DNA of 64,000 bases. It comes from Tubulanus polymorphus (Eukaryota; Nemertea; Palaeonemertea; Tubulaniformes; Tubulanidae). The stretch lies in contig NC_134028.1 in NCBI RefSeq assembly GCF_964204645.1, forward strand, positions 1,860,001-1,924,000, written 5' to 3'. The position numbers were made by a program, and so were the translations under genes. Shown here piece by piece: positions 4,659-55,944 of the stretch. The notes under the pieces are model-generated. The model searched no databases, was not told the origin of the DNA, and saw only the letters and a program-made list of their open reading frames with translations. How positions within the stretch are numbered: position 1 is the stretch's first letter; each line of letters opens with the position of its first letter.

Positions 4659-4860
4659 TCAGGAATTATTTTTCCGCTGTTGATTAAACTTACGTAATCT
4701 TTCGACATAATTTCCTGGGAACGTTCCAACATGACCGGTCCTGCTGTTAGAACCAACGAACCAACCATCGTCGCATTTCTCTATAATGTGTATATGATCT
4801 CCTTCTCTTAGTTCCATTTCATCGTCATTACGTGGTTTATATTTATACTTGGCTTTGTAC
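4659..4860 (-). CDS. PDZ-SORBS last coding exon: third SH3 domain
   Basis: The acceptor TTGTTATTCAG precedes one base that completes the previous codon. The exon then encodes a whole SH3 domain with the motifs [20 protein letters not shown] and [11 protein letters not shown], almost the same as the C-terminal SH3 of vertebrate SORBS1/2/3. The Trp and the PxNY ligand-binding residues are intact. A short basic, Gln/Asn-rich tail ends at TGA (4661-4659). In SORBS proteins this domain binds partners such as Cbl, Sos or dynamin. Confidence 0.93.
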
Positions 4861-7800
4861 CTGAATAACAAAAGTTCAATAAATATTTCAAGTTTTAATA
4901 TCGATGTTTCCTAAATATGTATATACAGTAGAATTAGATTTAGAACTGAGGATCTGGCCCTAGACTTGAAGCCTAACCCCAGGGGTGGATTCAGAGGTGG
5001 ATATAGAGGCCAGTTTTGAAGAACATGTCACATCCCAAAAGGGCACTTTGATGTCCACTAAGGCAATATTGCACTAAATACTGCACTGAAATGCACCAAT
5101 TATCTTTGCAGACAAAATAGAAAAGGCACTTTGATTTGACTTAGTCTTACAAGTCTCTTCTGGATCCGCCCTGGCACTCGAGCATCATTTAGAGAATTAA
5201 AAGGATTAATTACTTACAATTCAATCGGTTTTTCCCGAGTTGGCTGCGGAGGTGGAGCTACTTTTTGTTCGTAAAATCGTTCCGGTTCTTGTCTCTGTTC
5301 ACGACGTCGATACGAAGCCTCATCGAACCATTTCTCGTGTCCCATTGTGCGTGGCGACGACGACGCATGTCGACTACCGCCTCGAGGTGCGGTGGAGGCT
5401 ACGACTCCATTCATTTCCGAACGCGATCGTTCGCGTTCAATCGTCCCGTTATCGTTCGCTCGTCGATCCATGCCTGCTGGATAATTCATTTTGTCATGTC
5501 TTTTCAAACTAGAATAGTTGTTATACGGATGATGTTGGGGAGAATACTGGTCAATACGTGAGATGGTCCCTTGTTCTGAACTATAATCACTTTTATTACT
5601 AGATTGCCGATGGTACGGATTTGTTTCTTGTTGCTGTGGTACGTGATGCGGGCTATAATCCTTATTATGACTAGCACTATGCGGCAGAGAGTTATATTTG
5701 TTGTAAGTTCGTGACGGACTGCGTTGTTCCTGGTTATAGTAACCGCTCGGTCGCGTCGGACTCCGATCTGTCGCTCGCGGACTGTGGCTGTCGCCGTGGT
5801 ATTTGGCAGGACTGATTGGCTCGGGAAACATGAAGTGATTCGGCAGCGAATTAAAATTAGGCGAACCTCGCGGATCATCAGGCCATGATGGTGATAAAGG
5901 ACGAAGCGGGGTACCTAAAGAAAATAAAGATGAAAAAAATTATGCCACGGTTTGAGTCGACAGATTGAACAAGTCTTCTGGGATTCCCAGTAAACATTAT
6001 TCGCTAGTATTCATGAATTTCAAAACATTTCCATTCTATTTCAATGCATGTTTTTGCCGTGAATCATTAAACCAGACATAAATGAAAGTTTCAATGTTCG
6101 TTCACCTGAGCTCTATTCCCTACGGTTCAATAATCATCAGGCAAGCAACTAAATGTCAGAGAGTATCGGCAGAAATTATTTCCCTTTTCAAAAAAACCAA
6201 TCGGCATGAAAATTCATAATGGAGATTGATTAGCATTCTTGCTGATTGGGAAACTATGTCATTGAGACCTTTCAAAATACCGTAATGCAATTAAGTTGTT
6301 TATACAAAAGCTCAGGGGAAATCATTCAACGCGAGTTACTGCAATGCCGAGTGCCACTGAATAGCGACGCCTGATCAATCCAAATCAAATCAATAAATCA
6401 TATAGATTTATCAGTAAATCAATGTGTATTTTTACAATTTCACAGCTAGAAACTTATACAGCATGATATAAAGCATACGTCTAAATTAATTGCATGTACG
6501 CTACTCAGTGTATATACATGTATTTGTATCATATTCATTCTCTAATTCTAAGCATATTTCAATCAAATAAGAATATTTCCCATCTGATATCAAACAAACT
6601 TTGCAACAGAAGTCTTCAAATTGACGTCATAAAATAACGTGCTCACCTGGACCTGGAGTCGTAGCAGTTGAAGGCGCAATCGATGAAGCGTATGAAGGAG
6701 CAATAGATGGTGCTGGTGTCAATAGAGGCATATCAGGATCGCGTAATACTTCCAGATATGTGGCCGGGATTATACCAGTCTGTCCATCGCGTCGAGCCTC
6801 GTACCAGTTATCATCAACACGACGTAGCAATGTTACTATATCCCCCTGAATACATTTAGAAAAACCATTCCTGAATTCCTGTTTCAAGTTACTCGTTTTA
6901 ACCAAAACCCACGAAGATTTGTACAGCAGAATCGGTACCTTCTGAGCAGAGAGCTCCATTGCATTTTGTTTAGTGAACTTGTATTTCAATTTAGCTTGTC
7001 CTTCTGCCCTGAATGCAGACTCGCGGGCTTCATCCAGTGACCGAACGATCTAATTAGAGAGCAAGAAAGCATTTTAATAAGATTTTAAAAGAATCACATT
7101 TTTATCTTTTATCAATATAATTACCTCGATGTAGTTTATAGGTACAATGCCACGGCGACCATGGCGTTCTGCCTCCCACCAATTCTTATCGACTTGCCGC
7201 AATAAATAGATGACATCATCCCTTCGAAATGACAGCTCCCTATAGTGAAAATGGTAGGGATCACAATACGTATTTCAGGGGTAAATCTATGTAACTGTCT
7301 GAAGTGATACTGGTTACTTACTTCGGACCATGTGCCTTAAAAGTGTACATCGCTTTTCCTTTACCCCGAACCTCGGGCATCCGTCTCTTATCGAATGTAG
7401 GTGGCGCTATCATCTGATCATCAAACCGATCTAGAGGCACCGGTGACTTCTGTTTCGGCCTAATTATCAAAATGAATCGTGCTTAATCAAACTCATTCAA
7501 CAACAAGTGGATCTTGCACATCTATTTACAAATCAACTTACATGAAATAGTCAGAATGTCTTCTTGCTTCATTTTTCAGAGCTTCCTCTTCAGCCTTCTT
7601 TTGTTTTTCAGCTTCAGTAATTTGTCGCTGCGAGTAAATTAACGTAATATGAACAATTTATTCAACAATATTTTGTGAGAAAATTGTTCTTCTAGTCATT
7701 TTTCATGGTGCATCTTGTAACTTAAGATCCGATTTTAGCGGTTTATTTTACCAGAATTTCACGACGTCTGGCATCCTCTTCATCCCGTCTGCGCCGGTCA

Positions 7801-10800
7801 ATAGTAGAAGTCGGACTGCGGACTTCCGACGGGATGTCCGACGTAGATAAGTGGTGTTTGCGTATTGGAGGGGTTGACTGGGCTGTAATGAAGAACGTAA
7901 ATAAATTACCAAATAATACCTACAAAATTCTGTGTTGTGATTAAATCTTGACTAACTTTCAGCGAGGTCCACGCGCAATACGAATTAATCATTGCAGCCA
8001 GTCTCTAGGCAACAGAGACATTAAACTGAGAATGAATGCGTTTGAAAAGCTTCTGGCTGCATTTCAATTAATAAGTAATAGGTTTATATATACAACCACT
8101 TGTTAGAACATACACTGCAAAGAGTTGAATCTTAAAACTGAAGCCAGTTCCATAGTCATAGCTTTACCTTAAGACCAGTCTAAGACCAACATGGTTCTAT
8201 AGCCAATCTAGTAACCTAAGACCAGTCTCAAGATTTAAGCCCACTTTTAGACTCTAGTCTCGACTGTGGAATCGGGCCCAGAATGCTAGAATGTTAGAAT
8301 GGTTGATGATGACACAATGAATGATATTAATAATAGAAAGTTAGTAACCTGTTTGATTATAAGATTCACAGTTGTCAGGATGATCATACTCATAAGCATT
8401 GTCGCTATGCGTAGGATAGGCATAATGAGGTGAATCATTCGAATGATCACCGCGGTAAGCTTTAACGCGAGCTTGCACCGGAGCGTGCACCTCAACTCGG
8501 TCGCTACCGTCATCTCGGTAAACCGGTAAACTACCGACGCTCGCCGATGTCTTAAAACCGTTACTAGGACGAGAAGCGAAACTATCCGCGTTTTCGAAGC
8601 GTTTACGGATTTCTGCCAAGTCACCGGATACAGTACGAGGCATGGATAATGAGGGGTTGGACGACGCGCTGCTGCTCTCGTTGAAATTATCCAAACCGTT
8701 CTCGTAAACGCTTTTAATCCGGCGTAGTTCGGCGCTACGCACGATCGCCGGTGACGATTTCGCGTTTCTGAGATCGTATTGTTGAAGTTGATCGTTACGT
8801 TTTCCGTGTTCGAATCTGGCTTTTAGTTGAGACACAGTATTCACCGGCCATTCGGAAGAATCATTTTCATCTTCTGTATTTTCCGGACCATTTTTGTCGT
8901 TTCCATTCCACGCGATGTTTGGCTCGGATTTCGTTTTCCAGATATTCGTCGGTGACTGCGGTTGTGCGTCATTCGTTAGATTATCCTCGGAAATGGCTCT
9001 GTCCAGAAAATTATTATTATTACTAGGAACCTCATCTTTGAAAATGAAAGTATCATTGCTCCCGAATGAGGAACTCGTTCTTAGTTCAGTCGGATTCATC
9101 TCTGTATTATTCTGATCCCGCGATGAAGGTTGGTACGGTTCTAGGTTGGCAGCTTTCTGATATCCTCTAGCCAATGAAAACTTAGTCTGAGCGAAATCAT
9201 TATTATCGGCGAGTTTTCGCAAATCTTTCACTTCGAAACTGGGGGTCGATTTGTTGTTGAGATCGTTTGAGAACTTTCTAGGTGGCACCGCCGGTGATCC
9301 GACTGTTTTCGATGGTTTCGAATATATCGGAGATTTACGATCTGATATCGACGTCGAATCGGTCTGTTGAATGTTTTGTTCGTTATTATTTGACGGATTC
9401 AAATCGTTATCCGACCGTTTATATCGATCCCAAGGCATCGCGTACACGGGAGAATATTTACGAGGTATTTCTTTAGAAGGCTGAATTCGATGCTCGTCGC
9501 GTTGCATCATGGCCGGTTGTTGTTCACCGGAATTATCGCTCGTCGGTTCCCATTTTCTACCGAGAACCATCTGAAACAGAGCTGGAGGTGTACTGCTACC
9601 TGATGAAATGATAGGACTAATTCTTCCATGAGGATTCGATACAATCGGCTGCTTTACGCGTTCAGGCTGCTTGACTACACCTAATTTCTTAGCTGGAATG
9701 CTTTCTCTATCATTTAGTCGATGAATATCAATGGACGGAGGTGATGAAAGAGGCAAGGGAGGCGGGTGACTAGCATCATCGATAAATGGACTACTCGTAC
9801 GTAATGGGGGCGGAATAGGACTAGAATGTCCGTCTGGACGATCGCGATATTCAGGCACTTTCGACGCCGATGGCATATTGGACAGATTTCCAGAACGTTC
9901 TAGTACAATAGTACTGGTGACGCGGACAGGTTGCGGGCGTGTATCAGCGCGTTTCCACGCTGGAGACGTGATGGGTTCACGTTGAAGTTGATAAGTAGAT
10001 TTGGCATTTTCGTCGGATTTCAGAACCGGAGCGACCACTCTGACAGGCGGCGTATCGCGTTCATTTTGCCAGAATTTCTTTGCCTCCTCGACGGAAGGGT
10101 TCTCCGAACTGAAATCCGAAGCTCGGTACGAGTTCGATAAATCTAACTGAGGACGATCTTTCTCGACGACTTCTTTCGGTTTATACGGAGCCGATACGGA
10201 ACGTACGTGCAGATTATTATCCATATCCGGCTCGGATTTAGACTTTTTAAGATTAGTAACGTACACTTCGTACGGATTTACTTTCTCGTCCTCACCGGCT
10301 CGATACAACGGTCGAATCTTCGCCGAATTAGCCGCATTTTCCATAATCTGTATATAAGAACCGGACTTTGCGGACGAGGCGTCTTCGGCAGCGGCGAGTT
10401 TCTTCTGCGCTTCGACGAAATCGAGGAAACTCTGGTCGCGTTGAGTTTCATCGTCGAGCTGTTTATATTTCTCGCGTAATTTCACGAACGACAGATCGCG
10501 TTTGAACCCCGGTTTAACCTGGTAATCCGGTTTAACGACGCGGGTATTTTCGTTCGCGACGCCGCCTTCGTCGTAGACTTTTTTAATATCGCCGACCGAC
10601 TTGGAACGTTTCATCAACGAGCGATCGAGTCTCGGTTCCCATTCGGTTCCCGCTTTCGTCGTTCGATACAAGAACTCGTTTCGCTTCTGAGCGCCGTCTA
10701 GATCGTCGTATAAACTACACAGCTCTTCCTCTTCTGGTTTCAGAGCCATCTTTTCGCAGTCTCGATTCGCTTTGATCATTTTAATCGATTTTAAAGTTCT

Positions 10801-13800
10801 CGGTAAACTGGTCGCCGTTCGACGGTTAGTCGTCGGTTTCTGCTGCAAATCCTTTTCGATCTGCGAAATGCGTTCCAGATTTCCGAAACGTTTTTGCATC
10901 TTAGTGAAATGCGTTGATTTGCGTGTCGACTGCACGATACCGGCCGCGTACGACTGATAGGTTTGCGGATCGAGACGAGACATCGTCGATCGTTCGCTGC
11001 ATTCGCTCGTCGTCGACGCCGCACCGCGTTTTACCATATTCACACGCGACTGATACAAGTCAACGCCGAGCACGTTCGGATTCCACGACGACGACGACGA
11101 ACGTTCCAACGAATCATCGCTCGAATTCAACTCTCGTCGATTGCGATCGCGTAAAACCGTCGATCTCTCCAACGAGTCGTCGCTCCAGTTTAGATTTTGA
11201 ACGCGATTGTTGGAATCAGTTTTACGAACGTCGTCTATTGAATCTATACTAACATTCGGACCTGTAACCGAGGAACCGATGATTTCAGATGTGCTTCCGT
11301 TACCATTGTTAATTCTACTATGAATGGATATAGGAGGTTTTGTCATACGATGATGATTTGAAACAGATGTTGCCTTCATCGCGTCACGCTTGTTTTCGTC
11401 CGTTAAATCACGCATTCTATTATTATCCGTAACATGTGAACTTCGATGATTTTCCCGATGTTTTTTATGCAAATCCGACGTCGACGCATTCAAATTATTC
11501 CGCGTTTTATTCGATAAATCTTCGACGCTTTTACAGCGACTGTATTCCCCCCCGCGACGTAATACGGGCGAATGTTTCTGATCGCGATTTCTATGAATCG
11601 GGACTGATATTTTTCCCGACAGATCTAGCGTTTCACTCGAGTTAGTTTTATCGAATGAAAGACGTCGCTCGTGGTCGACGGCTTTCCAAACGTCGTTATC
11701 GATTCCCGGGTGATAAGTCCGATGTATTTCTGTTATTACATCGCTATCATCTAGCGGCTGATCCTCCTGAGAAGTTAACCGTTTATAGTGTTCTTCGACG
11801 CGATTACGATAATCCTCTCTTTGATAATCTACGAAATCCGTATCGGGATAATCCTCAGGATAATCCTCGGCGCGATCTTCGTTTTGATCGTTATTGAAAA
11901 TTGCCAGTTGTCGAAAGCGATCTTCGTAAGAGTCGGGGTTGTATTTACGTAAAAGAGCTCGAACCTCGGGACGAGTGAACTCTTCCTCGAGACTGCTGCT
12001 CACGTTCGAATTATGACGTAACGCGGGCGACCGATTATTCTCGTCGATGTCGTCACGTCGAATCAAACTTTCCATCGATTTACTATAAACCGATTCCGAG
12101 AGGCTGTCGTTCGAAAACCAGCGAATAGAAAGGTTTTCAGTGGACGTGCAGCGAGACGTATCGCGACTATCTCCCGATTCGTATTGTAACACGCGATCGA
12201 GAACTCGATCTTTCGGTTTTTCGCGGTTTTTAAATCCGAATTCTCCGCGACGTCGAGGTTTTTTGTGTTTTTCGCGTTTTTCTTTGAATTGGTTCAGTCG
12301 AGCGGAGATACCGCGTTGAGGCTGGTCGCGTTTAGACGCTTCGAATTCGTTCAGAGTTTTCCGATCGAATCTAGGAGAAAACGGTTGTTGCATTTTGTTC
12401 GAGATTTTCGCTCTATCGCTTAACGACGCACAAACCACGAGATCACGAGATTTGCGTTCAAAATCATAGAATTTATCATTAGGCCAAATGCGGGATATTA
12501 GCCGAGGAATCTCGGGAATGTTAAAACAGATAAAATGGGATCGAGCCTCATAAATTCACCAACTGGAAAAAGAAAATAAACAACAAAGTTAGCTCAAACA
12601 AAAATACCTCCCAGGGCCCCATATACCATATATATACCGGTACAAACACACTATTGAAGGCATGACATTTTTCTCCTGAGCAAATTATGAACGAGTGACT
12701 CATAGAAATGATGGAAAGATGACGAGTCCAAGAAATAGTCCTGCTATAAACAATATCCTCGACAGAATAATGACGTAAGTTCCCATGAAAAGAGACGTAA
12801 AGAGCAATATCCAAAAATAGATGAAGGGCAAGTAGGAAGGGAATTGACTACTTCACATCAGATAAGGGATAGGCAAGCAGATCCTATCAATGGATAACCA
12901 ATTTCAATAATGTTTGAGGACGTACACTTTGTTTGCTTCGTCTCTCATATTGTTTCTGATATTGGATTTCATATAGACGAAAAGCAACGAGCACAAATTA
13001 CTGACAGTCGCCTGGAAATTATTCAAATCTTTCAACCGGTGAATTATATGAAGAAATTAAATATTTATAGCACGTTCTGGAAGCAGAGTTTAGTCATCAA
13101 TATCTGTGTATACATTTGATTGTATTGTTCGACAAGTGTGACTCTGTGAACACCAGAATATATTTCTCAGACAAGGAAACGCCTATCAATATTTAAATAT
13201 ACCTAAATTCTGCAATCAGATTCTCAATTACTAACGGCATTATGGCTGATACAGTAGTATCATAGCTGACACAGTTGTATCAAATACGGCCAATACATTT
13301 TGTAATAAAGCTGATGCCTTTTATTCGTCAGAGACCCAAGTTATATATTTGGATGCCTAAGATAAATCTTTTTTTTTTAACTCACTCTATCGAGACATCC
13401 AATTTTGGATGAAATTATATCATACCTCAAAAACTCAATCTTAAATCAATGCGAACAAGTTGCTAATCCAAATATTGCGAGTATTATGATAAAGTTTGAT
13501 TGAATCAATGCAAAAATTGTATAAGCCTAAAACTAGATATCGATTGTACAGTTGAAATGAGTCAATATCGTAATCAGAACAATTATAGATAAAAACTCCT
13601 CGATGACTAGAGAAAACACGATGGGAAACCATATGACAATGGCAGAGGGGCCCCCAGGACGATGAGTGTTCAAATTCTCAAATATCCCCTCCATATGGTG
13701 TACGCAGCAGATATGAGATACTAGGAATAATATGATGAATGCGAAATCAATAGAATACACAGTTTACACACATTACAAATACACGAACGTGCTCGGCGAA

Positions 13801-16800
13801 AAACAGACAAGAAAAAACCCACCGATTGAGACACTAAAAAAGACCTCGATTACAACTACCTTAAAGACTACCTTAGAAATAATACCAGAAAATAGGTTTC
13901 ATTTTGAAAATATTGTAAAATGTGGATTTGAACGCGACGCGATACGGATGAAATCTCGAGCAAAATGCAACTGAAACACACTGTGAATATATAATCCTTA
14001 TGATAGTCCAGTTTCAGTGAGAGTATCTGTCACAAACATGTCACTACAGCCACTGTCGCTACGACACTGTGTTCTCTGTGTCCACAGCTTCTGCCGCCTG
14101 TCTCCTTCAGTTAGTGTCGTTAGTGCTATAGAGAGCTAGCACGCGAGTATGCACACTGTGTGTGGTGGTTATAACGATGATGATGTCTCAATAGAACGAC
14201 GGCAATGCTAACTGACGCCCAGTGTGAGGAGACACATGTTAATTATACGCCCTCCTCTAACTGTATAGTCACCTCCAGCAGCATATGTTCAACACCGATA
14301 GATAGAAATTCAATAATTCTCGCTTAAAAACCAGTTTTCAGTTATCCCTGCAAATCACTATGAAATTAGCCGATAGATTCGAATAAACAGTCATCGACGA
14401 TGGTTTTCACTCGTCGCTCGCTATCCGCTTGTGCAGGTATTCAATCAGCAACAACGATGGCCAGGTAATATAACTTTCCGTTGCCAAGAGGCGGCTTAGT
14501 AACCGTAATGGAGAACAACTTTAAATTTCCTTCGTTGGTTCGTGCTGCGACGTTCGGGGCATATTTCATCAGTCGGTAGGACGTGTATTACCGAGTCTAA
14601 CACAGATACAATACATTAATATCGACCTGTCGTCGTATGGTGTCGATATCAGTTGAAGAAGAAATCAACCTTCGATAAGGAATTATAACTAGTAATCATG
14701 AATAATTCCGATCATGACCCAGTTTTTGCAGTACGCGGACGAATCAATCAAATTTTAATGCGTTTGTTTTCTAATGATCGCCGCAAAATTCGAATGAAAC
14801 TTGATTCGATGAATCTTATGAAGTAATAGAAATGAAATTTGACGACTTATGAGTCAGCAGCTGTGGTAAAATACATGTGGGAATACGGGAGCTCGGTACG
14901 ATATCAAATATACCCACAATATATGACAACGTTAGGTATAAATCATAGCACACATGTTTTAAGTAGTTAATTACCGGTTCATATTTCAATTATTCATCTA
15001 CTGCATCGGAGACTCGATTGCACATTTAACACATAAACAATTTATACTTTAAAGTTGATGTCATGATACGTACGGAGATATAAGTATTTGGTTACAGAGG
15101 GGAAAGGTTTTGAGTTAGTACGTACTACATTGGTATATGAAGTTAGTATTTTGGAGAAAAATATAACATAAATGTCATGAATCGAAGAGAATGATATGAC
15201 AGACATGCTTTATAAAAAATCTATAAATTATTGAGATTACTTATTATTTAAATTACGAAATCAACTACATTTATAGTTAATGCATGCATATCTTGGCTTT
15301 ATGCCAGTTCCTAAGATATTTCAGTATTTAGAAATTATCAGAAATATTGTATCTAAATATCTTGAATTCAAATGAGCAAATATTGATATTTGGGTCAGTG
15401 AATTGACCATATAATACGACTGCCAACTGGTGTTATCAGCCAGATTTCAGCAGGAATTTGATGATTCAATGAAAAACCTCATCAGAAAAAACTGTCATGC
15501 CTTCAAAGATGCATCGCAAAAATATACAAAGGTGATATTACAGGGAGATATAATGTTAGTATATATAAACGCTTGCTAAATGTTTAGAAGAAGTATATAC
15601 TATCTACATTCTACATATACTGACAGTTTGACAATGATGTAATTAGTTAAATCAGTTAATGCTAATTGACCCAAAACTAATGGCAAACAAATCCAACCAA
15701 ATCACATGAGTAATTAACTAGTTAATCATAAAGTTAAGGGTGTAACAATCAATGTACAAACTCATTGAGACCCATTATACCATTGAGTAGTTAGAAAGTT
15801 CCTTTGAAAACTGTAAAATTCACCATATCTCTCGAGTCATCACAGATATGACAGATGCCAGAAGTAAATGATACCATTACCTAGTCAGGTAGGATGATCT
15901 GACCAGACTACTAGTCGTACAGTCGTATGGTTGGCAATTCAAATTTGGAATCAGGTAGTTAGAATCTCAATGAGCTGTATAAGTATGGATCGAAAAGAAA
16001 TATATATAAGACATAAATTTACCTCTTCGTTCCGGTGCCGGTTTTCGAAAGCCGGATAGCGGGATATCGCCGCCCCTCTGTACCTGGACGTACCAGTCAT
16101 GTTGCTGCGTAGGAGAAACGGACCTCGAGTTGTTAGCTGAAAGTCGACCACTCGGTACTTTACGATCGTCTAATATACTACAAGTAATTCAAAAACAAAT
16201 CACACATTAATGCTTTATCACACATTACTGTTTATCACAGTTAGTACATACATATTATTTACATAATGTGATGATCTATGAACAGTGTTAATTATTTCTA
16301 AAAACATGGTTTCTATACCTTTTCCACACCCTTTCAAGGGCCAAATATTTGCATATATATTTACATAGCTACCGAATGAAGTATAAGCTTAAGACTCTCA
16401 CAGAATTAAAACTTTATGGAAATAACTACAAGGCCTACAATATAAAAACCACAAGAAATAACTATCGAGACCACATTTCTAAAAGTTTCACAGCTTTTTC
16501 ATTGCTTCAGACACGAAATGTAAAATTTCATAACTTTTCAAAGCCTCGAAATAATAATAACTAATTTCCGTTGCTTTTGCCATAATTTTCAGGTCCAACC
16601 CGAACCCTGTAGAAAACAGTGATCAGTATCTCAATCAGTATTTCCTTGAAAACCTTTGGCAGCAAATGCTATGCTTCACCCATACTTGTAGATATTAGTA
16701 GTACGGTAATCCATACATCATCAATCATCTTATTACAAATGTTTATAGATGTGTCAGAACTAATTGATTTCTCGGCTATATACCTATTATATCCTCTACT

Positions 16801-37800: not shown

Positions 37801-40800
37801 AAGCCGATCCTACCTTTTCAGTTCTAGTTCCAGTGTATTTCCAGCAGATTTTATCTGTTTCTGAGCGGCGATTAATGATAATCCTTCAGTGTTCTCTCTG
37901 TTTATCAGATGTACCACATCCCCGACTTGTATGCCCTCTCTGTACGCCTTACTGTTTGGATTCACCTGCAAAACATTAATATATCAATGAAAACCAATAA
38001 GAAATGTTGTACCAAACACTAGACCGCGTGTAGATATAAAATCTAACGAGCTGGGAATATCTTGTTCCTTCAAATCCACAGATGAGACTAGAGGTTTATT
38101 ACAACTAAAACTACCTCCTTAAAATGATCTGTTTTTTCTCGGCGAAGTTCATGATGAACATGAAAACGTTGATTAGATGAAATTGGTATGATACAAATCT
38201 TTGTCAAAGGTCACAGACAAAGACGGGATCTTCACTGATCGAACTAAGATATGTCAATCGCTAATACCTAATACCGCGTTAGTTAATGATGTGTCATCAA
38301 GGAATTTTTTCTCGAAGAAACCATTACAGAATAATTATCTCGCGATGTCAATCAAATACTTATAAAAAATCCTGTTCTGTGGTTGTTTCATATATCGAGC
38401 CATTTATGAGGTGTTTCTATAAGCGCTGTTCATTAGTAAATATATTGTGGTTAATGTCATTTTTAGATAGCTATCTAAAATCCATTTGCGGTTTTCAACG
38501 AGGCTTCATTAATCAACTTCAATCAACCCTCGTATGGCCACGACAATTTTTTTAAGCAATAAGCCTACATGCACAGAAAAACTTATTCGTACCTAAAAGT
38601 AAAAGTGATAATGCATATCGATAAATTCAGCGAAATGAACGCGTTATCAATATTTTAACAAGGAAAGATCAAAGTTTATTTGATTAGTTTATTTCTAGTA
38701 TGTAGGAACGTTGAAATAAGTTTATATTTAGCTATGAAAACAATAACAAAATGTTGAGCTAGGTACGAAAAAAAACCCCTATGCCGGAAGTTTCTCATCA
38801 ACTGCGCACTTCACAATAGACTAAGTACTGATTGTTTTCCTTCCTTGGTTATCGTTTTAAGCACCGACATCAGAAATCTATTTGAAAGGGTTCAGAATTA
38901 AAGACAATGAATTTTACATCATGAAACCCCTAGCAAAAAACCACACAGTCTAACACACTTAATCTGGAGCAGCTTAATCCAGATTTTGGTCTAATCCGGA
39001 CAATATTTGCGGTCCATTTGTTCATTATAGAAAATGACTTTTAATCCAGATTTCCCATAAACCGGATGAATTTCGTTGGTCCCAAATGATCCGAATTTAG
39101 CGGATTCCAGGCATGTACTAATACTAAAGCCATAGATTTTAACCTAGCAAATGAAGGTGGACACTTGAGGAAGGATTCCAAGTATCCACCTTCATGGAAA
39201 TAAAAGAATACCTGTGACATCCGTGCATAACGAGCCAGAATTCCATCAGACGGTATCAATCCTCCAGACATTATCGGATTCACTGACCTTTACCACGTAT
39301 CCAACTAACCGAACCAATAGAGAGTTAACTGAACTGAACGATGAAGAACAGATAGAAAGCTGCTAAAATTCCACCTGAAACCCCCTGTGTTTCTACAACC
39401 TGTGTACACTAACTACCATCTGAATCAGACTTCAAAGATAAAGTGATGAAGGAAGTTAAAATTGGAACAAACGGTTGATGTCGATGAACTGGTATGAATG
39501 TGTGTTACTGATGATGATATTACAAATAAAAACCACCAAATGTGAATAAACAAAAACACAACGTTTTTTTTCCAAGCGAAAGACTACAACGTTTTCAAGA
39601 ATGAGAACGGTAAACTAACGTTCTCGTTAATGGATCTGTAATTGTTTGAGATGAAGGTATACAACAGATGAGCTGATGAAGACAAATGATAGGACGTACT
39701 ATTTGATGCCAAGACAAAGATGACCTCCAGGTGCCATAACAGTGATGCCAATGCTCCAAATCCAACAGACAATGCTCCAAACCCATGCAACAGACCATCT
39801 TCCAGAAAGCTATATTCCTACATAGTGGTTCGCAAGAGCTACCCTTATTGACTAAAAGATTGAATGATGGATTCATAAAGTTTTTTCAGCTTTCATAACC
39901 ATTAAAAACATATGGCAGAGCAAATATGAAATCAACTCACACTCACAAATATTCCGTAACTTCTCAATGACCATATTTAGCAAGATTTCAATTTATATTC
40001 ACATTTCTCCGATAATCATGTACCATTTGTCGCCTTGTACATACATGCATACATATAATCTCAGTCTTTGTCAATATCAATACAGACCACAAGTCATTTT
40101 GTGAAGTATTTACAAGACACTTGACACATCTGTCGTACGCTGAGGTCGATAATTGCCTAATGAAAAGACGAACTATTTATTACCTGGTGATTTGTTTTTT
40201 GCTTATCGTTCAATTGTTCTTTGCCAAGAATGAAAACCATTTAAAATTCGGAAACGAATGATGTGAAGTTGAATCTTGAAATGACCTGTTAAATTTAAGA
40301 TAAAACTTTCAGAGAATATCGCGTTATAAATTGAGATATTCCTGATACTAAAATTGGGTTGAACACTAATGATGAACTCATCAATGAACCTGTTAACCTA
40401 TCGAAGAACAACTATGTAAATCAACGTTCTGGTTTTCAGATCTCGTGAGCATCCTAAAATACCCTTCAATCACCAGCATTTGTGAAGTAAGATTTAGTCG
40501 AGCGTTTCATTGATAGATTTTTCTGATAGGTAGTCAATAATATATTCGGTCTAACAGAAAGAAAAAAAGGATTCAGTAGCACTGAAACATACAGGCCAGT
40601 TAGAAATTTATATTTACCATCCCCCTCTTCAAGTGGTGAGGGTTTGCAGAAAGATGCTGCAAGGGTTATAACCGGTGATATAAAGCTCGGTAATGTCAGA
40701 GAAGTAAATGTACATGTATATAACCATCACAGCGGTGGTTCTAGTAAGACAGAAACTGAACGAGAGCTCGTTCATGCTCCTCATGCTCCTCGGGATGAGG

Positions 40801-46800: not shown

Positions 46801-48369
46801 AGAACATTTTGCTAACTGCATAGAATCAAGTAAATGTACTAATGACCACTCTGAACTAATTAAGCCAATTAACTTTGCGGCTAATTAGCACAGATTTGCA
46901 TAAGGCTTCCCATATATTTTACTGGTTTTACTGGAGCAAACTGAACAACCTTGAGTATATATACCAACCCAGAGATCGTATAATGTAGCCCAGCTCATAT
47001 TGATAACAGCTGTGAGCTTGAAACTATTTAACTCTCTCTACCTGAATCGGGTAACAGGCTACTATCACCGAGATTCCATTATAACGAATGATTTAGAATT
47101 GCAGCATCAGAGGGAAACATTTTTCAGTGGTAGCTAGAAAATTGTGCTGTCTCATTATTTTCCAGACTCGTTCCTCTATTCAAAATCTTAAAATTGAAAA
47201 CCTTGTTTTGCTCCTGGCAGGTGTGATGGGTTTGGTGGGTTTGTAAGGGACACCTTATCAGACAATAAATAAATAACAGGGTCAATCCGGATTCTAAGAT
47301 CAGAAAGAATTGAAAACCTTTGATATGAGTGACAATATTAGATCATTTCATTCACTCAGATAGTGAAATCTCTTGCGTAAAAACCCCTGACTCACCCTCC
47401 ATTCAATCTATCGCGGAGGATGCTAAGATTATTCTGATCAGAGGTCTAGTAGTTAATGTAACATGATTCACCAACTTGTTTTTAACCGAATGGAATAATC
47501 TATTTTGGTATCGGAATTAAATATCACTGCTGCGATCTCAGTCTGCACCATGTTCTGCCTTTTGCTTCAATACTTTGGAGGAGTTAATAAAGACCGTACT
47601 GGAAATACTCAAGATTTACTGACTGCAAGATTCACAGATTCCACATTTAGAAATCTACAATCCTTAATGAATTACAATTTAATCACTAGGCTGAATTTAC
47701 TTCAACAGCTGACAGGGAAAGTATTCAGCATTTCAGAAGTAATTATTAAGTGACTTAAGTCATTTAATAGGTTTATAATCATAGCCAAACTCAATATTAT
47801 AAACCAAATCCACTTTCTATGAAATAACATGGAGCTCAATTGGATATGAACAAAGGAAGCCCTGGGGGCATCATTATTGGGTTTGACACATTTTGACAAT
47901 TGGGTCTTTGACTTATTTAGTTATAGAATGGGTTGTATTTGTAATACCACAGCAACAACCCAGCTATGCCCGGCGCTAAAGATAAATACAGCTATTAATT
48001 CTAAAATCTGCACAAAATCCTAAAAATTAAACATTAGAAATAGGCACGAATAAATGAAATAGTGATGGAACAATATTTTACGACTAAATATGATACATCA
48101 TGTGTGGCCCAATTATCGAGGTGTTACAGCAGAATAGACCAAACAAGATTTTCACGTGAAAAATGTCAATCCCGGGGACCAAGGTCCAGTTTTAATCCAC
48201 CCCCTAGGTTTGCATATATACATAATCTATTGTCGTTAAATGATCTTACCTTTGATATGTAGATGCGTTCGTCATTCTCCGCGCCTCCCTGTATTCTAAA
48301 TCCCCATGGTGCTCCACCGTACAAAGTGACAACATAGGCCATCTTGATAACCGGGGACGGTGAGGACAT
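4659..48369 (-). CDS. PDZ + SoHo + three-SH3 adaptor protein (SORBS family)
   Basis: Cytoskeletal adaptor of the sorbin/CAP/vinexin family, expected at actin-linked adhesions or Z-discs. My 26-exon chain, high to low coordinate: 48369-48250, 37965-37814, 34986-34766, 32471-32235, 31343-31191, 30754-30656, 28599-28084, 26972-26763, 26579-26368, 26217-26040, 24693-24634, 23650-23457, 23379-23304, 21236-21153, 21074-20990, 20443-20326, 18355-18306, 16177-16023, 7882-7752, 7627-7542, 7459-7322, 7239-7125, 7049-6939, 6845-6647, 5914-5218, 4860-4659. Every junction is GT-AG and phase-matched. The total of 4599 nt gives 1532 residues. Domains: PDZ about 10-90, SoHo about 764-900, SH3 about 1078-1130, 1148-1203 and 1466-1525. 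The SH3 order and sequence are diagnostic of SORBS proteins. The N-terminal PDZ, of the [12 protein letters not shown] type found in synaptopodin-2 and PDLIM proteins, is not part of the vertebrate SORBS proteins I know. Alternative first exons and a 4-kb exon are listed separately. Confidence 0.88.
5218..5914 (-). CDS. PDZ-SORBS exon: disordered Ser/Pro/Tyr linker between SH3-2 and SH3-3
   Basis: This 697-nt exon (phase 1 in, phase 2 out) has acceptor TTTTCTTTAG and donor GTAAGT. The encoded linker is rich in Ser, Pro, His, Tyr and Arg, with many RSPS/DRSPT-like sites that could be phosphorylated, and ends in a proline run before KPIEL. If the donor is not used, the reading frame stops one codon later (TTG TAA), which would give a protein lacking the third SH3. 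No shadow ORF on the plus strand here looks coding. Confidence 0.88.
6647..7049 (-). CDS. PDZ-SORBS exons: second SH3 domain
   Basis: Two exons, 7049-6939 and 6845-6647, are split by a 93-bp intron with no stop codon, so the reading frame runs through it. The spliced product reads [16 protein letters not shown] then [19 protein letters not shown] and [11 protein letters not shown], a canonical SORBS SH3-2 with Trp and PxTY intact. Retaining the intron would insert 31 residues into the domain and almost certainly destroy the fold. The 93-bp intron is a multiple of three and stays open, so retention would be in frame. The exon ends in a Pro/Ser/Thr/Ala run with two APSxAPSYAS-like repeats. Confidence 0.92.
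7125..7459 (-). CDS. PDZ-SORBS exons: first SH3 domain
   Basis: Two exons, 7459-7322 and 7239-7125, encode the first SH3. The basic lead-in [12 protein letters not shown] is followed by [31 protein letters not shown] and GIVPINYIE. The split falls inside the Lys codon of GPKELS, with matching phase 2. In SORBS proteins SH3-1 and SH3-2 together bind the proline-rich hinge of vinculin. The WW pair and the PINY motif are present, so binding should be retained. Confidence 0.92.
7542..7882 (-). CDS. PDZ-SORBS exons: basic/acidic coiled-coil lead to the SH3 cluster
   Basis: Exons 7882-7752 and 7627-7542 encode [10 protein letters not shown], then a Ser/Pro stretch, then [15 protein letters not shown] and an [19 protein letters not shown] helix that could form a short coiled coil. 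The first exon starts in phase 1. That matches both upstream donors that could feed it, the 16023 exon and the 8349 end of the large exon, so the large exon can be skipped or used without a frame change. Confidence 0.87.
8349..12393 (-). CDS. PDZ-SORBS large alternative exon, Ser/Arg-rich, likely own start
   Basis: A 4045-nt open frame with CpG-rich codon use unlike the AT-rich introns. I place the start at ATG 12393 (AAAATG, A at -3). The frame stays open further upstream to about 12550. It ends at donor GTTACT (phase 1) and joins the 7882 exon, giving a 1907-residue isoform with all three SH3 domains but no PDZ or SoHo. The protein is charged and disordered. It contains RVLQYESGD and [10 protein letters not shown], which resemble the ILQYES and KSKSMPNL words of the big neuronal exon of vertebrate SORBS2, and two copies of SDDSLERS. 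A strong acceptor (TTTCTTTTTCCAG, exon from 12561) exists, but entering from the phase-1 donor at 16023 reaches a TAA near 12502. That is why I favour an independent promoter with the upstream part as 5' UTR. Confidence 0.8.
12562..16022. other. Intron, possible internal promoter region around 14.0-14.7 kb
   Basis: No convincing exon is visible. The part between about 13.9 and 14.7 kb is richer in CpG and lacks obvious repeats, and could hold the promoter and 5' UTR for transcripts that start in the large exon at 12393. The rest is AT-rich with only short chance ORFs on both strands. Confidence 0.35.
16023..16177 (-). CDS. PDZ-SORBS exon: conserved [22 protein letters not shown] segment
   Basis: The acceptor GAATTACTTGTAG is followed by one base and then [10 protein letters not shown], a Ser-rich stretch and a conserved-looking block: [17 protein letters not shown], then FRKPAPERR. 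The exon is phase 2 in and phase 1 out (donor GTAAAT). Two upstream exons, 18306 and 17200, both end in phase 2 and can join here. The Gly-Gly-Asp-Ile-Pro block between SoHo and the SH3 cluster looks conserved rather than disordered, but I cannot name a function for it. Confidence 0.85.
17200..17330 (-). CDS. PDZ-SORBS alternative first exon (MQESSN...), SoHo-less isoform
   Basis: The ATG at 17330 opens 43 codons without interruption and runs into a perfect donor GTAAGT in phase 2, exactly the phase needed by the 16177 exon. The peptide starts [12 protein letters not shown] and ends [14 protein letters not shown]. The joined isoform would be 1965 nt, 654 residues, with the [10 protein letters not shown] block and three SH3 domains only. 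I could find no acceptor that makes it an internal exon, because the preceding in-frame bases do not offer a matching phase. It therefore reads best as a first exon with a promoter between 17.35 and 17.7 kb. Confidence 0.6.
17924..17950. repeat. Small hairpin related to the one at 2063
   Basis: GGGAAGTG (17924-17931) pairs with CACTTCCC (17943-17950) across an 11-base loop. It shares the stem sequence of the hairpin at 2063-2090 but not the flanking direct repeats. Confidence 0.5.
18306..18355 (-). CDS. PDZ-SORBS 50-nt exon
   Basis: The acceptor GTTTTTCAG and the perfect donor GTAAGT bound a 50-nt exon encoding [16 protein letters not shown] plus a split Tyr codon. Phase 0 in and phase 2 out fit the exons on either side. 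The last in-frame bases before the donor are TA, so correct splicing into a T (the 16177 exon) is needed to avoid a stop codon. Moderately proline-rich; no domain. Confidence 0.8.
19560..19760 (+). repeat. Possible tRNA-like SINE remnant
   Basis: The word CAGTTCAAATCCCTCC near 19668 resembles a Pol III B box (GGTTCRANTCC), and a GCAGAGC word lies about 30 bases before it. The surrounding 200 bp have no coding signal. A tRNA-derived SINE fragment is possible, but the A box is not convincing. Confidence 0.15.
20326..20443 (-). CDS. PDZ-SORBS exon: C-terminal half of the SoHo region
   Basis: The exon encodes [17 protein letters not shown], then [19 protein letters not shown]. The PRSIxxYEPGxSS block is the hallmark second half of the sorbin homology region (compare PRSIFEYEPGKSS in vertebrate SORBS2). 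SoHo binds flotillin at lipid rafts in the vertebrate proteins. Starts with one base completing a Ser codon from the 20990 exon and ends in phase 0 at donor GTTAGA. Confidence 0.9.
20534..20922. mobile_element. 389-bp MITE with 44-bp perfect terminal inverted repeats
   Basis: The left terminus 20534-20577 (begins AAGCCTAGCGCACATCGACA) is exactly complementary to the right terminus 20879-20922. The interior repeats the words CACATCGA, GCGATTG and CAACNAGTTGC three or four times, as if the element grew by internal duplication. No transposase ORF fits in 389 bp. It lies in the 546-bp intron between the two SoHo exons at 20326 and 20990. A clean target-site duplication is not obvious: the flanks are CTAAAG and CTTAAAG. 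Confidence 0.9.
20990..21236 (-). CDS. PDZ-SORBS exons: SoHo region middle part
   Basis: Two exons. 21236-21153 encodes [16 protein letters not shown] and a short acidic helix ([12 protein letters not shown]). 21074-20990 encodes [19 protein letters not shown], a basic Ser-rich stretch with likely phosphosites. All junctions match: phase 1, phase 1, phase 2. Both lie between the DWYK and PRSI blocks of SoHo, where vertebrate SORBS proteins have variable sequence. Confidence 0.85.
21914..22236 (+). CDS. Unrecognised plus-strand open frame with upstream splice acceptor
   Basis: The frame has no ATG at its start but is preceded by a good acceptor (TTTGATCTTTCAG, ending near 21924). From there it stays open for about 104 codons to TGA at 22236. 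The peptide looks protein-like, with aromatic and Gly-rich stretches ([34 protein letters not shown], ending TAPFYYE). I recognise no family. It lies in an intron of the minus-strand PDZ-SORBS gene, with no exon opposite it. It could be the last exon of a nested gene, a retrocopy fragment or an unusually protein-like chance ORF. Confidence 0.35.
22379..22531 (-). CDS. PDZ-SORBS acidic cassette exon (51 codons)
   Basis: The acceptor TTGATTGTTCCAG and donor GTGTGT bound a 153-nt symmetric exon, phase 1 in and phase 1 out. That is exactly compatible with the neighbouring exons 23304 and 21236. It encodes a very acidic stretch ([20 protein letters not shown]) and an Asn/His/Asp-rich tail. Because it is symmetric it can be included (1583 residues) or skipped (1532) without a frame change. 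The location splits the SoHo region just after the DWYK block. Confidence 0.6.
23304..23650 (-). CDS. PDZ-SORBS exons: N-terminal half of the SoHo region
   Basis: Exon 23650-23457 encodes a Lys/Glu-rich lead and then [19 protein letters not shown]. Exon 23379-23304 encodes [20 protein letters not shown]. Together they give the SoHo signature: GPxxExGxPIAxR followed by DWYKxxxKxxHK (vertebrate SORBS2 has DWYKTMFKQIHMVHK). Phases are 1-0 and 0-1, with donors GTATGT and GTTTGT. This identifies the gene as SORBS independently of the SH3 domains. Confidence 0.92.
24634..24693 (-). CDS. PDZ-SORBS 60-nt exon
   Basis: A small exon with acceptor GTTTTTCCAG and donor GTAAGA, phase 1 in and out. It encodes [20 protein letters not shown], Ser/Thr/Asn-rich with no domain. 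Symmetric, so it could be skipped in some transcripts. Confidence 0.75.
24748..24843. repeat. 96-bp inverted-repeat element, CCAGTTTCACAAAG type
   Basis: ACCCAGTTTCACAAAG (24748-24763) is matched by the near-complement CTTCGTGAAACTGGTG (24828-24843), with only a few mismatches. A second, more diverged element with the same ends lies at 57708-57788. No ORF. Probably a short non-autonomous DNA element. Confidence 0.5.
26040..26579 (-). CDS. PDZ-SORBS exons: WxP/KPV motif exon and proline-rich exon
   Basis: Exon 26579-26368 encodes [20 protein letters not shown], a charged coiled-coil-like helix ([13 protein letters not shown]), then [18 protein letters not shown] and a Ser/Pro tail. I chose the donor GTATGT at 26367 (phase 0) because the weaker GTATTA upstream would break the frame of the next exon. 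Exon 26217-26040 encodes [18 protein letters not shown] and further proline-rich sequence. The repeated IW(T/S)P and KPV words are discussed in the findings. Polyproline stretches may serve as ligands for SH3 or WW domains. Confidence 0.83.
26261..26338. repeat. 39-bp tandem duplication in an intron
   Basis: Two adjacent 39-bp units, each beginning GGATTATGCAGGTCTGA, differ at a few bases. They fill half of the 150-bp intron between the two exons above. On the minus strand the duplicated unit is open in the upstream exon's frame (QSDLHNPNQ twice), but the strong donor at 26367 precedes it, so I read it as intron. Confidence 0.8.
26763..26972 (-). CDS. PDZ-SORBS exon: Ser/Thr-rich linker
   Basis: The acceptor ATATTTCAG and donor GTATAT bound 210 nt, phase 1 in and out. 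The exon encodes [17 protein letters not shown], then a Ser/Thr-rich stretch with a run [12 protein letters not shown]. No domain. Position and phase fit between the 28084 and 26579 exons. Confidence 0.82.
28084..28599 (-). CDS. PDZ-SORBS exon: disordered linker with [14 protein letters not shown] helix
   Basis: A 516-nt exon, phase 1 in and out, acceptor TTTTCTCTAG, donor GTATTA. It encodes [19 protein letters not shown], an acidic stretch, polyproline ([13 protein letters not shown]), two SPSIxK words and a C-terminal helix [20 protein letters not shown]. The KGxxMFxxxxxR word is loosely like a motif in synaptopodin-family proteins, which also carry this type of PDZ domain. That similarity is from memory and is only suggestive. 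The CpG-rich codon use is clearly coding. Confidence 0.88.
30656..31343 (-). CDS. PDZ-SORBS exons: KPVSF linker and acidic linker
   Basis: Exon 31343-31191 (153 nt) encodes [19 protein letters not shown] and a Ser-rich tail ending LDSLMAK. Exon 30754-30656 (99 nt) encodes [17 protein letters not shown], then [16 protein letters not shown]. Both are phase 1 in and out with donors GTAAGA and GTAAAA, hence symmetric and skippable. The first continues the IWTPSFG word that ends the 32235 exon. Confidence 0.83.
32235..32471 (-). CDS. PDZ-SORBS exon: Arg/Ser/Pro-rich linker ending in IWTPSF
   Basis: The acceptor CTCGAACAG precedes 237 nt, phase 1 in and out, with donor GTCTGT. The exon encodes [16 protein letters not shown], a TPTPEP stretch, [15 protein letters not shown] and SNRIWTPSF. 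Without splicing the frame would remain open to a stop at 32134 and add about 34 residues. The donor is only moderate, so an intron-retained short isoform is conceivable. Confidence 0.82.
33996..34032 (-). CDS. Possible alternative first exon ([10 protein letters not shown]...) below a GC-rich promoter-like block
   Basis: The ATG at 34032 has a strong context (AGCATGG). It encodes [13 protein letters not shown] and reaches a donor GTTTAT in phase 1, the phase needed by the 32471 exon. Directly upstream on the minus strand, 34060-34200 is the most GC- and CpG-rich non-coding block of this region (GCGGGGGCGGCGGCTGCTG), as expected of a promoter or 5' UTR. A second possible donor at 34015 would give the wrong phase. 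Only 12 codons support it. Confidence 0.33.
34060..34200 (-). promoter_or_regulatory. GC/CpG-rich block, candidate internal promoter
   Basis: A local island of G+C and CpG (including a GGCGGCGGCTGCTGCTGCG word) sits in an otherwise AT-rich intron, immediately upstream on the minus strand of the ATG at 34032. No coding frame explains the composition. Promoter assignment is inference from composition and position. Confidence 0.35.
34766..34986 (-). CDS. PDZ-SORBS exon: polar linker, joins PDZ or lipid-anchor first exon
   Basis: A 221-nt exon that begins with the single base completing an Arg codon and ends in phase 1. It encodes [17 protein letters not shown], a Lys/Gln-rich stretch and [14 protein letters not shown]. 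Two different upstream exons end in AG in phase 2 and can join here: the PDZ exon at 37814 and the short exon at 35997. Both give RGEDIHH. No domain. Confidence 0.83.
35997..36028 (-). CDS. PDZ-SORBS alternative first exon with possible lipid-anchor start
   Basis: The ATG at 36028 encodes [10 protein letters not shown] and reaches donor GTAAGG in phase 2, exactly the phase of the 34986 exon. Gly at position 2 followed by a Cys-Cys pair is typical of N-myristoylated and palmitoylated membrane proteins. Residue 6 is Gly rather than the preferred Ser or Thr, so myristoylation is not certain. The isoform (4359 nt, 1452 residues) would replace the PDZ domain with a membrane anchor while keeping SoHo and SH3. 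Only ten codons are involved, so coincidence cannot be excluded. Confidence 0.5.
37168..37288. mobile_element. Dispersed element with perfect hairpin and hammerhead-like core
   Basis: The segment begins AGAGAAATCCCACAATAAG (37168), shared with 59824-59841. It ends in a perfect 15-bp stem: ATTAGCCATCATCAG (37254-37268) with 37274-37288 and a 5-base loop. On the minus strand it reads CTGATGA (37268-37262), a GGCTAA/TTAGCC hairpin, then GAAAC (37242-37238). This is the order of the conserved bases of a hammerhead ribozyme. Similar CTGATGATGG...GCCGAAACGTT words are widespread in animal repeats. The cleavage triplet and stem I are not clearly present. Confidence 0.5.
37814..37965 (-). CDS. PDZ-SORBS exon 2: second half of the PDZ domain
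   Basis: The acceptor TTTTGCAG and donor GTAGGA bound 152 nt encoding [20 protein letters not shown], then [20 protein letters not shown] and NTLELELKR. This is a canonical PDZ C-terminal half: SKA.R.G...GD.V..IN, then the alpha-2 helix and final beta strand. Phase 0 in fits the end of exon 1, and phase 2 out fits the 34986 exon. Confidence 0.93.
41161..41193 (+). repeat. Dispersed repeat family, fragment
   Basis: ATAAGCCGCAATCACAGGGA and the following GAGGATTTGGCC match the left end of the element at 58406 with a few substitutions. The rest of the element is missing or too diverged here. Confidence 0.6.
43208..43447 (-). mobile_element. Dispersed repeat family, longer copy
   Basis: Read on the minus strand it starts GATCACACGGAGACGATTTG, continues through a GGATCAGACCCGAGT word and ends with a TTTTTGGTCGGGCC word. 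These three blocks occur in the same order in the element at 58406-58532. The middle is about 110 bp longer. No ORF. Confidence 0.65.
48250..48369 (-). CDS. PDZ-SORBS exon 1: start and first half of the PDZ domain
   Basis: The ATG at 48369 (CCGCCATGT, strong context) encodes MSSPSPVIK, then [20 protein letters not shown]. Residues [11 protein letters not shown] end at donor GTAAGA in phase 0. The [12 protein letters not shown] carboxylate-binding loop is the form seen in synaptopodin-2 and, slightly altered (GPWGFR), in PDLIM/ZASP proteins, which anchor to alpha-actinin. A second in-frame ATG at 48342 (MAYVV) could be an alternative start and still leave the PDZ intact. Confidence 0.93.
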
Positions 48370-55571: not shown

Positions 55572-55944
55572 TTACTTTTCTTTGATGCGAACTCTGCGCT
55601 CTTTCGACGTTCGAACCATCGGTTCCAACTCTTCTTCCACTCCGTCGTCCTCGTCAACTTTCACCTCGAGCGGAGTTTCGAGAAGGTCGTTTGCCTTTTT
55701 CATTTTCTCCGCCTTCTCCGCTTTCTCCTGAGCGTCCTGGCTTTTCATGTACTGGGCGTACGCGTATGCACGAGACCCACCACCTCCCCTGGCCCCAGCC
55801 CCTGTGCAAAACCTGGTCATTGTCACGCAACACACGATTACGAATACAAGTGAACCTGTGCCCATTCCGACGACGGCCTCAATTGGCCACGCCGGGCGTT
55901 CATGGTGACTCACCGTGCACTCGGCACCTTGTAATATATAACCT
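55572..55944 (-). CDS. Membrane-protein gene, alternative last exon B
   Basis: The acceptor TTTCTTTTGCAG is followed by one base completing the Arg codon left by the 58906 donor. It encodes GYILQGAECTVSHHERPAWP, a transmembrane helix (AVVGMGTGSLVFVIVCCVTM), TRFCTGAG, a GGGGSRA stretch, a Lys/Glu/Ala coiled-coil-like helix and a charged tail ending RVRIKEK. Paralogous to exon A at 56955-57372. Confidence 0.82.

What the first reader, a model, noticed from the sequence alone, without database searches (positions are those of the whole stretch)
4659..48369. One continuous gene joining a PDZ domain to SoHo and three SORBS SH3 domains
Seen: 26 exons with every phase matched sum to 4599 nt, an exact multiple of three, from a PDZ start ([12 protein letters not shown]) to the diagnostic third SORBS SH3. 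Known: the vertebrate SORBS1-3 proteins that I know have SoHo plus three SH3 and no PDZ; PDZ domains of this type occur in synaptopodin-2 and PDLIM/ZASP proteins, which also sit on actin and Z-discs. Inference: either an ancestral PDZ-SORBS architecture lost in vertebrates or a lineage-specific fusion. It would couple alpha-actinin-type and vinculin-type binding in one scaffold.
Basis: partly seen in the sequence, partly recalled or inferred. Interest (0 to 1): 0.8.

Follow-up and report, generated by a model that had tools for sequence, protein, structure and literature searches.

The report
Insect-like SORBS gene carrying a PDZ
A muscle and cell-adhesion scaffold gene (the SORBS/CAP type) in what looks like an insect genome seems to start with an extra PDZ domain of the ZASP kind, which the vertebrate versions are not known to have; the DNA supports this but no RNA or second species has been checked.

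Summary
On the minus strand, 48369 to 4659, I find 28 exons with matching phases and 27 GT-AG introns, 4737 nt, one stop at the end. Pfam finds one PDZ, one Sorb and three SH3 domains. The SH3s are closest to solved SORBS1 domains, the PDZ to ZASP and PDLIM proteins. The linking exons are far more coding than shuffled DNA. The join of the PDZ to the rest is favoured, not proven: 22.8 bits with motif bonuses, 3.0 without; and a phase-blind run loses phase at two joints of the linker. The PDZ has Leu where all six ALP/ZASP PDZs compared have His at the start of helix B, so alpha-actinin binding cannot be assumed. Age and spread could not be tested: no other animal genome was available. Eight searches of an open-access library aimed at it listed no paper I could recognise as describing a PDZ in a SORBS protein.

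The parts
48250..48369 (-). exon 1: start codon and first half of PDZ ([40 protein letters not shown]), phase 0 out
37814..37965 (-). exon 2: second half of PDZ, phase 0 in, phase 2 out; Leu at helix B position 1
34766..34986 (-). exon 3, linker, phase 2 in (fits exon 2), phase 1 out
30656..34187 (-). exons 4-8 of the linker (34187-34089, 33602-33549, 32471-32235, 31343-31191, 30754-30656), all phase 1 to 1
28129..28599 (-). exon 9, 471 nt, strongest coding score of the linker exons; contains [16 protein letters not shown]
24634..26972 (-). exons 10-13 of the linker (26972-26763, 26579-26368, 26217-26040, 24693-24634); alternative 26972-26878 + 26541-26368 also keeps frame but uses a GC donor
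23304..23650 (-). exons 14-15 (23650-23457, 23379-23304): sorbin homology (Sorb/SoHo) domain spans the junction
20326..22531 (-). exons 16-19 (22531-22379, 21236-21153, 21074-20990, 20443-20326); parts read as SORBS-like from memory, no Pfam domain
16023..16104 (-). exon 20, [18 protein letters not shown]
8350..12393 (-). giant open stretch, 1348 codons, from ATG 12393 to a donor (last exon base 8349) of phase 1; likely alternative first or cassette exon of the same gene, not in the 28-exon model
7125..7882 (-). exons 21-24 (7882-7752, 7627-7542, 7459-7322, 7239-7125), ending with SH3-1
6647..7049 (-). exons 25-26 (7049-6939, 6845-6647): SH3-2
5218..5914 (-). exon 27, linker between SH3-2 and SH3-3, taken as one open exon; the finder split it at 5591/5476
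4659..4860 (-). exon 28: SH3-3 and stop codon

Best explanation
The locus is the single SORBS (CAP/ponsin/vinexin) gene of an arthropod, most likely an insect, and its longest transcript starts upstream at a two-exon PDZ module of the ALP/Enigma (ZASP, PDLIM) type. Shown: the domains, their nearest families, phase-consistent splice sites and coding linker exons. Inferred: that one mRNA joins them; that the gene has several promoters, so that PDZ-SoHo-SH3, SoHo-SH3 and giant-exon-SH3 products are all made, as Drosophila CAP makes many isoforms; and that the full protein is an adhesion or Z-disc scaffold. In that picture the SH3s hold vinculin-type proline-rich partners, SoHo sits at the membrane, and the PDZ tethers the complex to a further partner whose C terminus is probably not the usual class I kind, because of the His to Leu change.
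For: Pfam: PDZ 54.4 bits, Sorb 29.2 (cut-off 27), SH3 three stretches, in the 1527-aa translation of the 4584-nt form (the longer form differs only in exons 10-11, where Pfam finds nothing). Solved structures: PDZ best 61.1 bits ZASP, the first 16 of 27 hits all LDB3 or PDLIM; SH3-1+2 best SORBS1; SH3-3 best SORBS1 then vinexin. The PDZ intron position (phase 0) and end (phase 2) are the same in the window and in L005, L006 and L007; L008 shows the same acceptor and end; L005 looks Shroom-like, so the layout is not peculiar to ZASP. Exon 3 takes phase 2, which exon 2 supplies. Gene finder: one gene in both settings. Shuffles: 39 of 40 without any exon. One SORBS-like third SH3 in the genome: 149.9 bits here, next best of 27 matches 63. 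Drosophila CAP spans 38 kb with 23 transcripts and 20 polypeptides, and one isoform (CAP-PP) without the common SH3 exons (PMC7259718, passages read).
Against: No RNA. The gain over the best two-gene model, 22.8 bits, is about the 22 bits that the model charges for one more gene end and start; without motif bonuses it is 3.0 bits, the rival there simply leaving out the PDZ exons, which carry almost no hexamer signal. In the phase-blind run the phase is lost between 37814 and 34986, where two weak exons intrude, and again at 26972 and 26579, next to the best place for a split; the final model mends the second place by other splice sites chosen by hand. The runs gave 32 and 28 exons that differ in detail from my final 28 (they include the giant stretch). 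The 10-kb intron inside the PDZ is long. PMC7259718 does not use the word PDZ in its text; its gene-structure figure is not held.
Confidence: 0.7

Rival explanations
1. Two adjacent genes on one strand: a ZASP-like PDZ gene (PDZ plus some linker exons) followed by an ordinary SORBS gene.
For: With motif bonuses the best split (tried every 300 nt; near 26900-26600) costs only 22.8 bits, without them 3.0. The phase-blind run loses phase at 26972 and 26579, just there, and between 37814 and 34986. ZASP-type PDZ exons exist elsewhere in the genome. Drosophila has a CAP isoform lacking the common SH3 exons (PMC7259718).
Against: The finder prefers one gene in both settings. Canonical junctions that keep phase exist at the suspected split (28129-26972, 26763-26579). 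Exons 12 and 13 join the SoHo exon in phase even when phase is ignored, so linker exons do belong to the SORBS side. No LIM hit is listed in the window; the nearest listed on C4 is at 2.811 Mb.
Confidence: 0.21
2. One gene, but PDZ and SH3 are rarely in one product: alternative promoters and ends give a PDZ isoform and separate SORBS isoforms. (A form of the best explanation; the odds overlap.)
For: The giant stretch has a start context of the insect kind (recalled) at 12393 and a phase-1 donor that fits the SH3-side exon 7882. Drosophila CAP is known for many isoforms, one without the SH3 exons.
Against: No terminal exon in the linker was preferred by the finder.
Confidence: 0.25
3. The PDZ came by a recent local copy from the ZASP-type cluster about 0.85 Mb away on the same contig.
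For: PDZ exons and LIM domains lie at G000:C4:2.771-2.812 Mb; same exon phases.
Against: Over 49 aligned residues of exon 2 the window PDZ scores 82-87 with human ZASP, PDLIM7 and PDLIM1 but 63-71 with the three local ones. Short sequences, so weak.
Confidence: 0.08

Closest known systems
SORBS family (SORBS1/CAP/ponsin, SORBS2/ArgBP2, SORBS3/vinexin; Drosophila CAP)
   Same: SoHo followed by three SH3s; SH3s closest to solved SORBS1 and vinexin domains; large gene
   Different: N-terminal PDZ; giant 1348-codon open stretch before the SH3s (a large alternative exon in vertebrate SORBS2 is recalled, not tested)
ALP/Enigma family (ZASP/LDB3, PDLIM1-5, 7; insect Zasp52)
   Same: PDZ sequence and two-exon layout shared with ZASP-type PDZs of the same genome
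   Different: No LIM domain in the translation; helix-B His is Leu; SoHo and SH3s instead. The family's ZM motif was not searched with a model of its own
Synaptopodin-2 family
   Same: [11 protein letters not shown] start, and a KG--MF--R-ER motif in exon 9, as I recall them from human synaptopodin-2; recalled, not tested
   Different: SoHo and SH3 domains here; their absence in synaptopodin-2 is recalled

Membership tests
SORBS | Sorb (SoHo) domain | tested here: met
   PF02208 29.2 bits, cut-off 27, E 6.8e-7; the genome-wide exon-by-exon search gave no hit, as expected if the domain is split over two exons
SORBS | three C-terminal SH3 domains of SORBS type | tested here: met
SORBS | one continuous transcript with SoHo and SH3s | not testable with these tools
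   no RNA held; phases agree
SORBS | binding to vinculin and Cbl | not testable with these tools
   needs protein work
ALP/Enigma (PDZ-LIM) | ALP-type PDZ | tested here: met
   exon layout
ALP/Enigma (PDZ-LIM) | one or more LIM domains in the gene | tested here: not met
   no LIM in the translation; no LIM hit at E 0.01 or better listed inside the window
ALP/Enigma (PDZ-LIM) | class I pocket, His at helix B position 1 | tested here: not met
   Leu in the window, His in 6 of 6 others; that this His marks class I is recalled knowledge

The most novel reading that the evidence does not exclude
PDZ-SoHo-SH3 is an old animal architecture. In vertebrates the PDZ was lost from SORBS, while SORBS and PDLIM genes stayed neighbours (SORBS1/PDLIM1, SORBS2/PDLIM3, SORBS3/PDLIM2, recalled in part). 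Arthropods still make one scaffold that joins a ZASP-type PDZ with a changed pocket to the vinculin-binding SH3s.
Probability: 0.2. Interest if true: 0.65.

Novelty: new variant of a known kind. Interest (0 to 1): 0.45.

Why it matters
ZASP-type and SORBS-type proteins organise the same places, Z-discs and integrin adhesions, as separate proteins in vertebrates (general knowledge). A single gene carrying both modules would say that the two scaffolds were once, or became, one polypeptide, and would give fly geneticists a concrete reason to look for PDZ isoforms that the SH3-deletion alleles of CAP leave intact (the authors of PMC7259718 suspect leftover N-terminal activity in those alleles). 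The pairing of SORBS and PDLIM genes in vertebrates would then deserve a proper synteny study.

Tried and rejected
A genome-wide search for the Sorb family gave nothing, I think because the domain is split over two exons; Pfam on the spliced translation found it. Synaptopodin-2 as source of the PDZ was considered from memory; no chain named synaptopodin was among the 27 hits, so it stays open. The exon at 1302-1119, last exon in the first run, was not used once SH3-3 was rewarded or the ends fixed. Exons 18355-18306, 14596-14504 and 12675-12638 were dropped because acceptor 16104 lets exon 19 join exon 20 directly. The GC donor 26878 was replaced by GT donor 26763. Dropping up to three of six chosen exons gave no total near 4599 nt. 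In the PDZ comparison I had typed one residue of L006 wrongly and added two recalled residues to PDLIM1; one search repeats it corrected and trimmed to 49 columns, without L005 (which has Arg at the helix-B position). Six exact TTAGG units occur in two places, C3:4.31 Mb and C9:0.82 Mb: no help in naming the order. Rfam (gathering threshold) and tRNA scans of the window were empty. The bacterial PDZ hit L012 is from a Stieleria contig and not an animal relative. The bacterial promoter scan does not suit an animal gene and was ignored.

Papers. Eight searches were aimed at a PDZ in SORBS/CAP and two at SORBS-PDLIM neighbours. One search listed 15 of 42 papers and 12 of 21. I read passages of PMC7259718, PMC1781342, PMC6637155, PMC4346930, PMC4609397, and, on checking, of PMC8570085, PMC5621683, PMC10909995 and PMC13121097, where PDZ occurs only in a pathway name or a reference title, or not at all. 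Other listed papers were seen as listings only. A 2013 paper on Drosophila CAP that I asked for by DOI is not held.

Limits of the gene finder: the non-coding training set included 38000-48000 and two pieces of the linker stretch, and the coding set included the giant stretch, so the zero exons found in the 10-kb intron are no independent control; splice matrices were generic values written from memory.

Full report
What was checked. The window is G000:C4:1860001-1924000 of a 267.8-Mb genome. No name is given; the single SORBS gene and the ZASP-type PDZ genes suggest an insect, which is inference. The gene lies on the minus strand.

Gene model. I wrote a small gene finder with in-frame hexamers trained on long open frames of four other G000 loci plus the window's giant open stretch, and generic splice matrices from memory. 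With the ends fixed at 49000 and 4000 it returned a single gene from 48369 to 4659, with or without a bonus for PDZ and SORBS motifs. Hand revision gave 28 exons, 4584 nt; a better canonical junction 26763/26579 gives the preferred form: 28 exons, 4737 nt, 1578 aa, one stop at the end, all 27 introns GT-AG.

Is it more than chance? In the stretch between PDZ and SoHo (37800-23701) the finder exons with 1962 nt; in 40 dinucleotide shuffles it called none in 39 and 4 exons (249 nt) in one; on the plus strand of the same stretch it called 8 exons (846 nt), and in the whole-window plus run the exons at 26070, 28222, 32166 and 34105 lie opposite exons of the model. Ignoring phase, 19 of 34 junctions over the gene match, where a third would by chance (P 0.006), and 10 of 15 exons from 37897 to 23504 have a matched incoming junction. 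Two joints are weak. First, PDZ to exon 3: in the phase-blind run two weak exons intrude there. Second, exons 9-10-11: the phase-blind run loses phase at 26972 and 26579, and the cheapest forced split lies there too. Forcing a split (every 300 nt from 37700 down) costs 22.8 bits at best with motif bonuses, about the 22 bits charged for another gene start and end, and 3.0 bits without, where the rival simply leaves the PDZ exons out. Support for the joins comes from exon ends: the PDZ pair ends in phase 2 in the window as in the four other PDZs of this layout examined, exon 3 takes phase 2, and canonical in-phase sites exist at exons 9-10-11.

What the domains are. Pfam on the 1527-aa translation: PDZ, Sorb and three SH3; the stretch that differs in the longer form has no Pfam match. 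Against solved structures the PDZ is nearest ZASP (61.1 bits), and the first 16 of 27 hits are LDB3 or PDLIM proteins. SH3-1+2 are nearest SORBS1 (100.5 bits), SH3-3 nearest SORBS1 (80 bits) and vinexin (78.1). The genome shows one such SORBS gene: third SH3 149.9 bits in the window, next best 63. Exon 9 has no second match at E 1 or better.

The PDZ itself. Over 49 aligned residues of its second exon, the window PDZ shares 18-21 with human ZASP, PDLIM7 and PDLIM1, and 16-19 with three ZASP-type PDZs of the same genome. At helix B position 1 it has Leu; the six others have His, and the Shroom-like L005 has Arg. By recalled knowledge of PDZ domains that His goes with class I ligands such as the alpha-actinin C terminus.

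Surroundings. ZASP-type PDZ exons and LIM domains lie at C4:2.771-2.812 Mb, about 0.85 Mb away on the same contig. In people, PDLIM3 is described as sharing a bidirectional promoter with SORBS2 (PMC6637155, passage; I recall the two as same-strand neighbours instead), and PDLIM2 and SORBS3 are listed in one 8p21.3 interval (PMC4346930, passage); that SORBS1 and PDLIM1 are also neighbours is recalled. A long-standing linkage of the two families is therefore plausible, not shown. The giant stretch with ATG 12393 and a phase-1 donor that fits exon 7882 looks like an alternative first or cassette exon; it has no Pfam match.

Known or new. Drosophila CAP is described with a SoHo and three SH3s, 38 kb, 23 transcripts, 20 polypeptides, and one isoform, CAP-PP, that lacks the common SH3 exons; the word PDZ does not occur in the text of that paper (PMC7259718, passages). 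The PDZ/LIM evolution paper PMC1781342 does not contain SORBS, vinexin or SH3. Eight searches aimed at a PDZ-SORBS protein listed no paper that I could recognise as describing one; the three listed papers with both kinds of term that I then checked use PDZ only in passing. Public protein databases may already hold such predicted proteins; that could not be checked here. I rate it a new variant of a known kind, with confidence 0.70 in one gene.

Noticed in passing
window 8350-12393, minus: 1348-codon open stretch, strong coding signal, no Pfam match, start context of the insect kind; fits as alternative exon of the SORBS gene.
   Followed up: partly
window 55576-55736 and 57012-57217, minus: Two similar exons, each after what reads as a membrane-spanning stretch and a glycine-rich SRA motif, look like tandem copies of a small membrane protein upstream of the PDZ exon.
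   Followed up: no
window 51816-52616, plus: 267-codon open frame with coding-like text and no Pfam match, between the PDZ gene and the membrane protein exons.
   Followed up: no
G000:C4:2771100-2812100 (L006-L009): Two ZASP-type PDZ exon pairs (one on each strand), a further second PDZ exon and a block of three LIM hits within about 41 kb: a ZASP-type gene cluster on the same contig as SORBS.
   Followed up: partly
L005 (G000:C5:21256001-21265000): A further PDZ with the same exon phases, which I take for Shroom from memory.
   Followed up: no
G000:C3:4313853-4313927 and C9:818422-818591: Six exact units of the TTAGG telomere-type repeat were found only in these two internal places.
   Followed up: no
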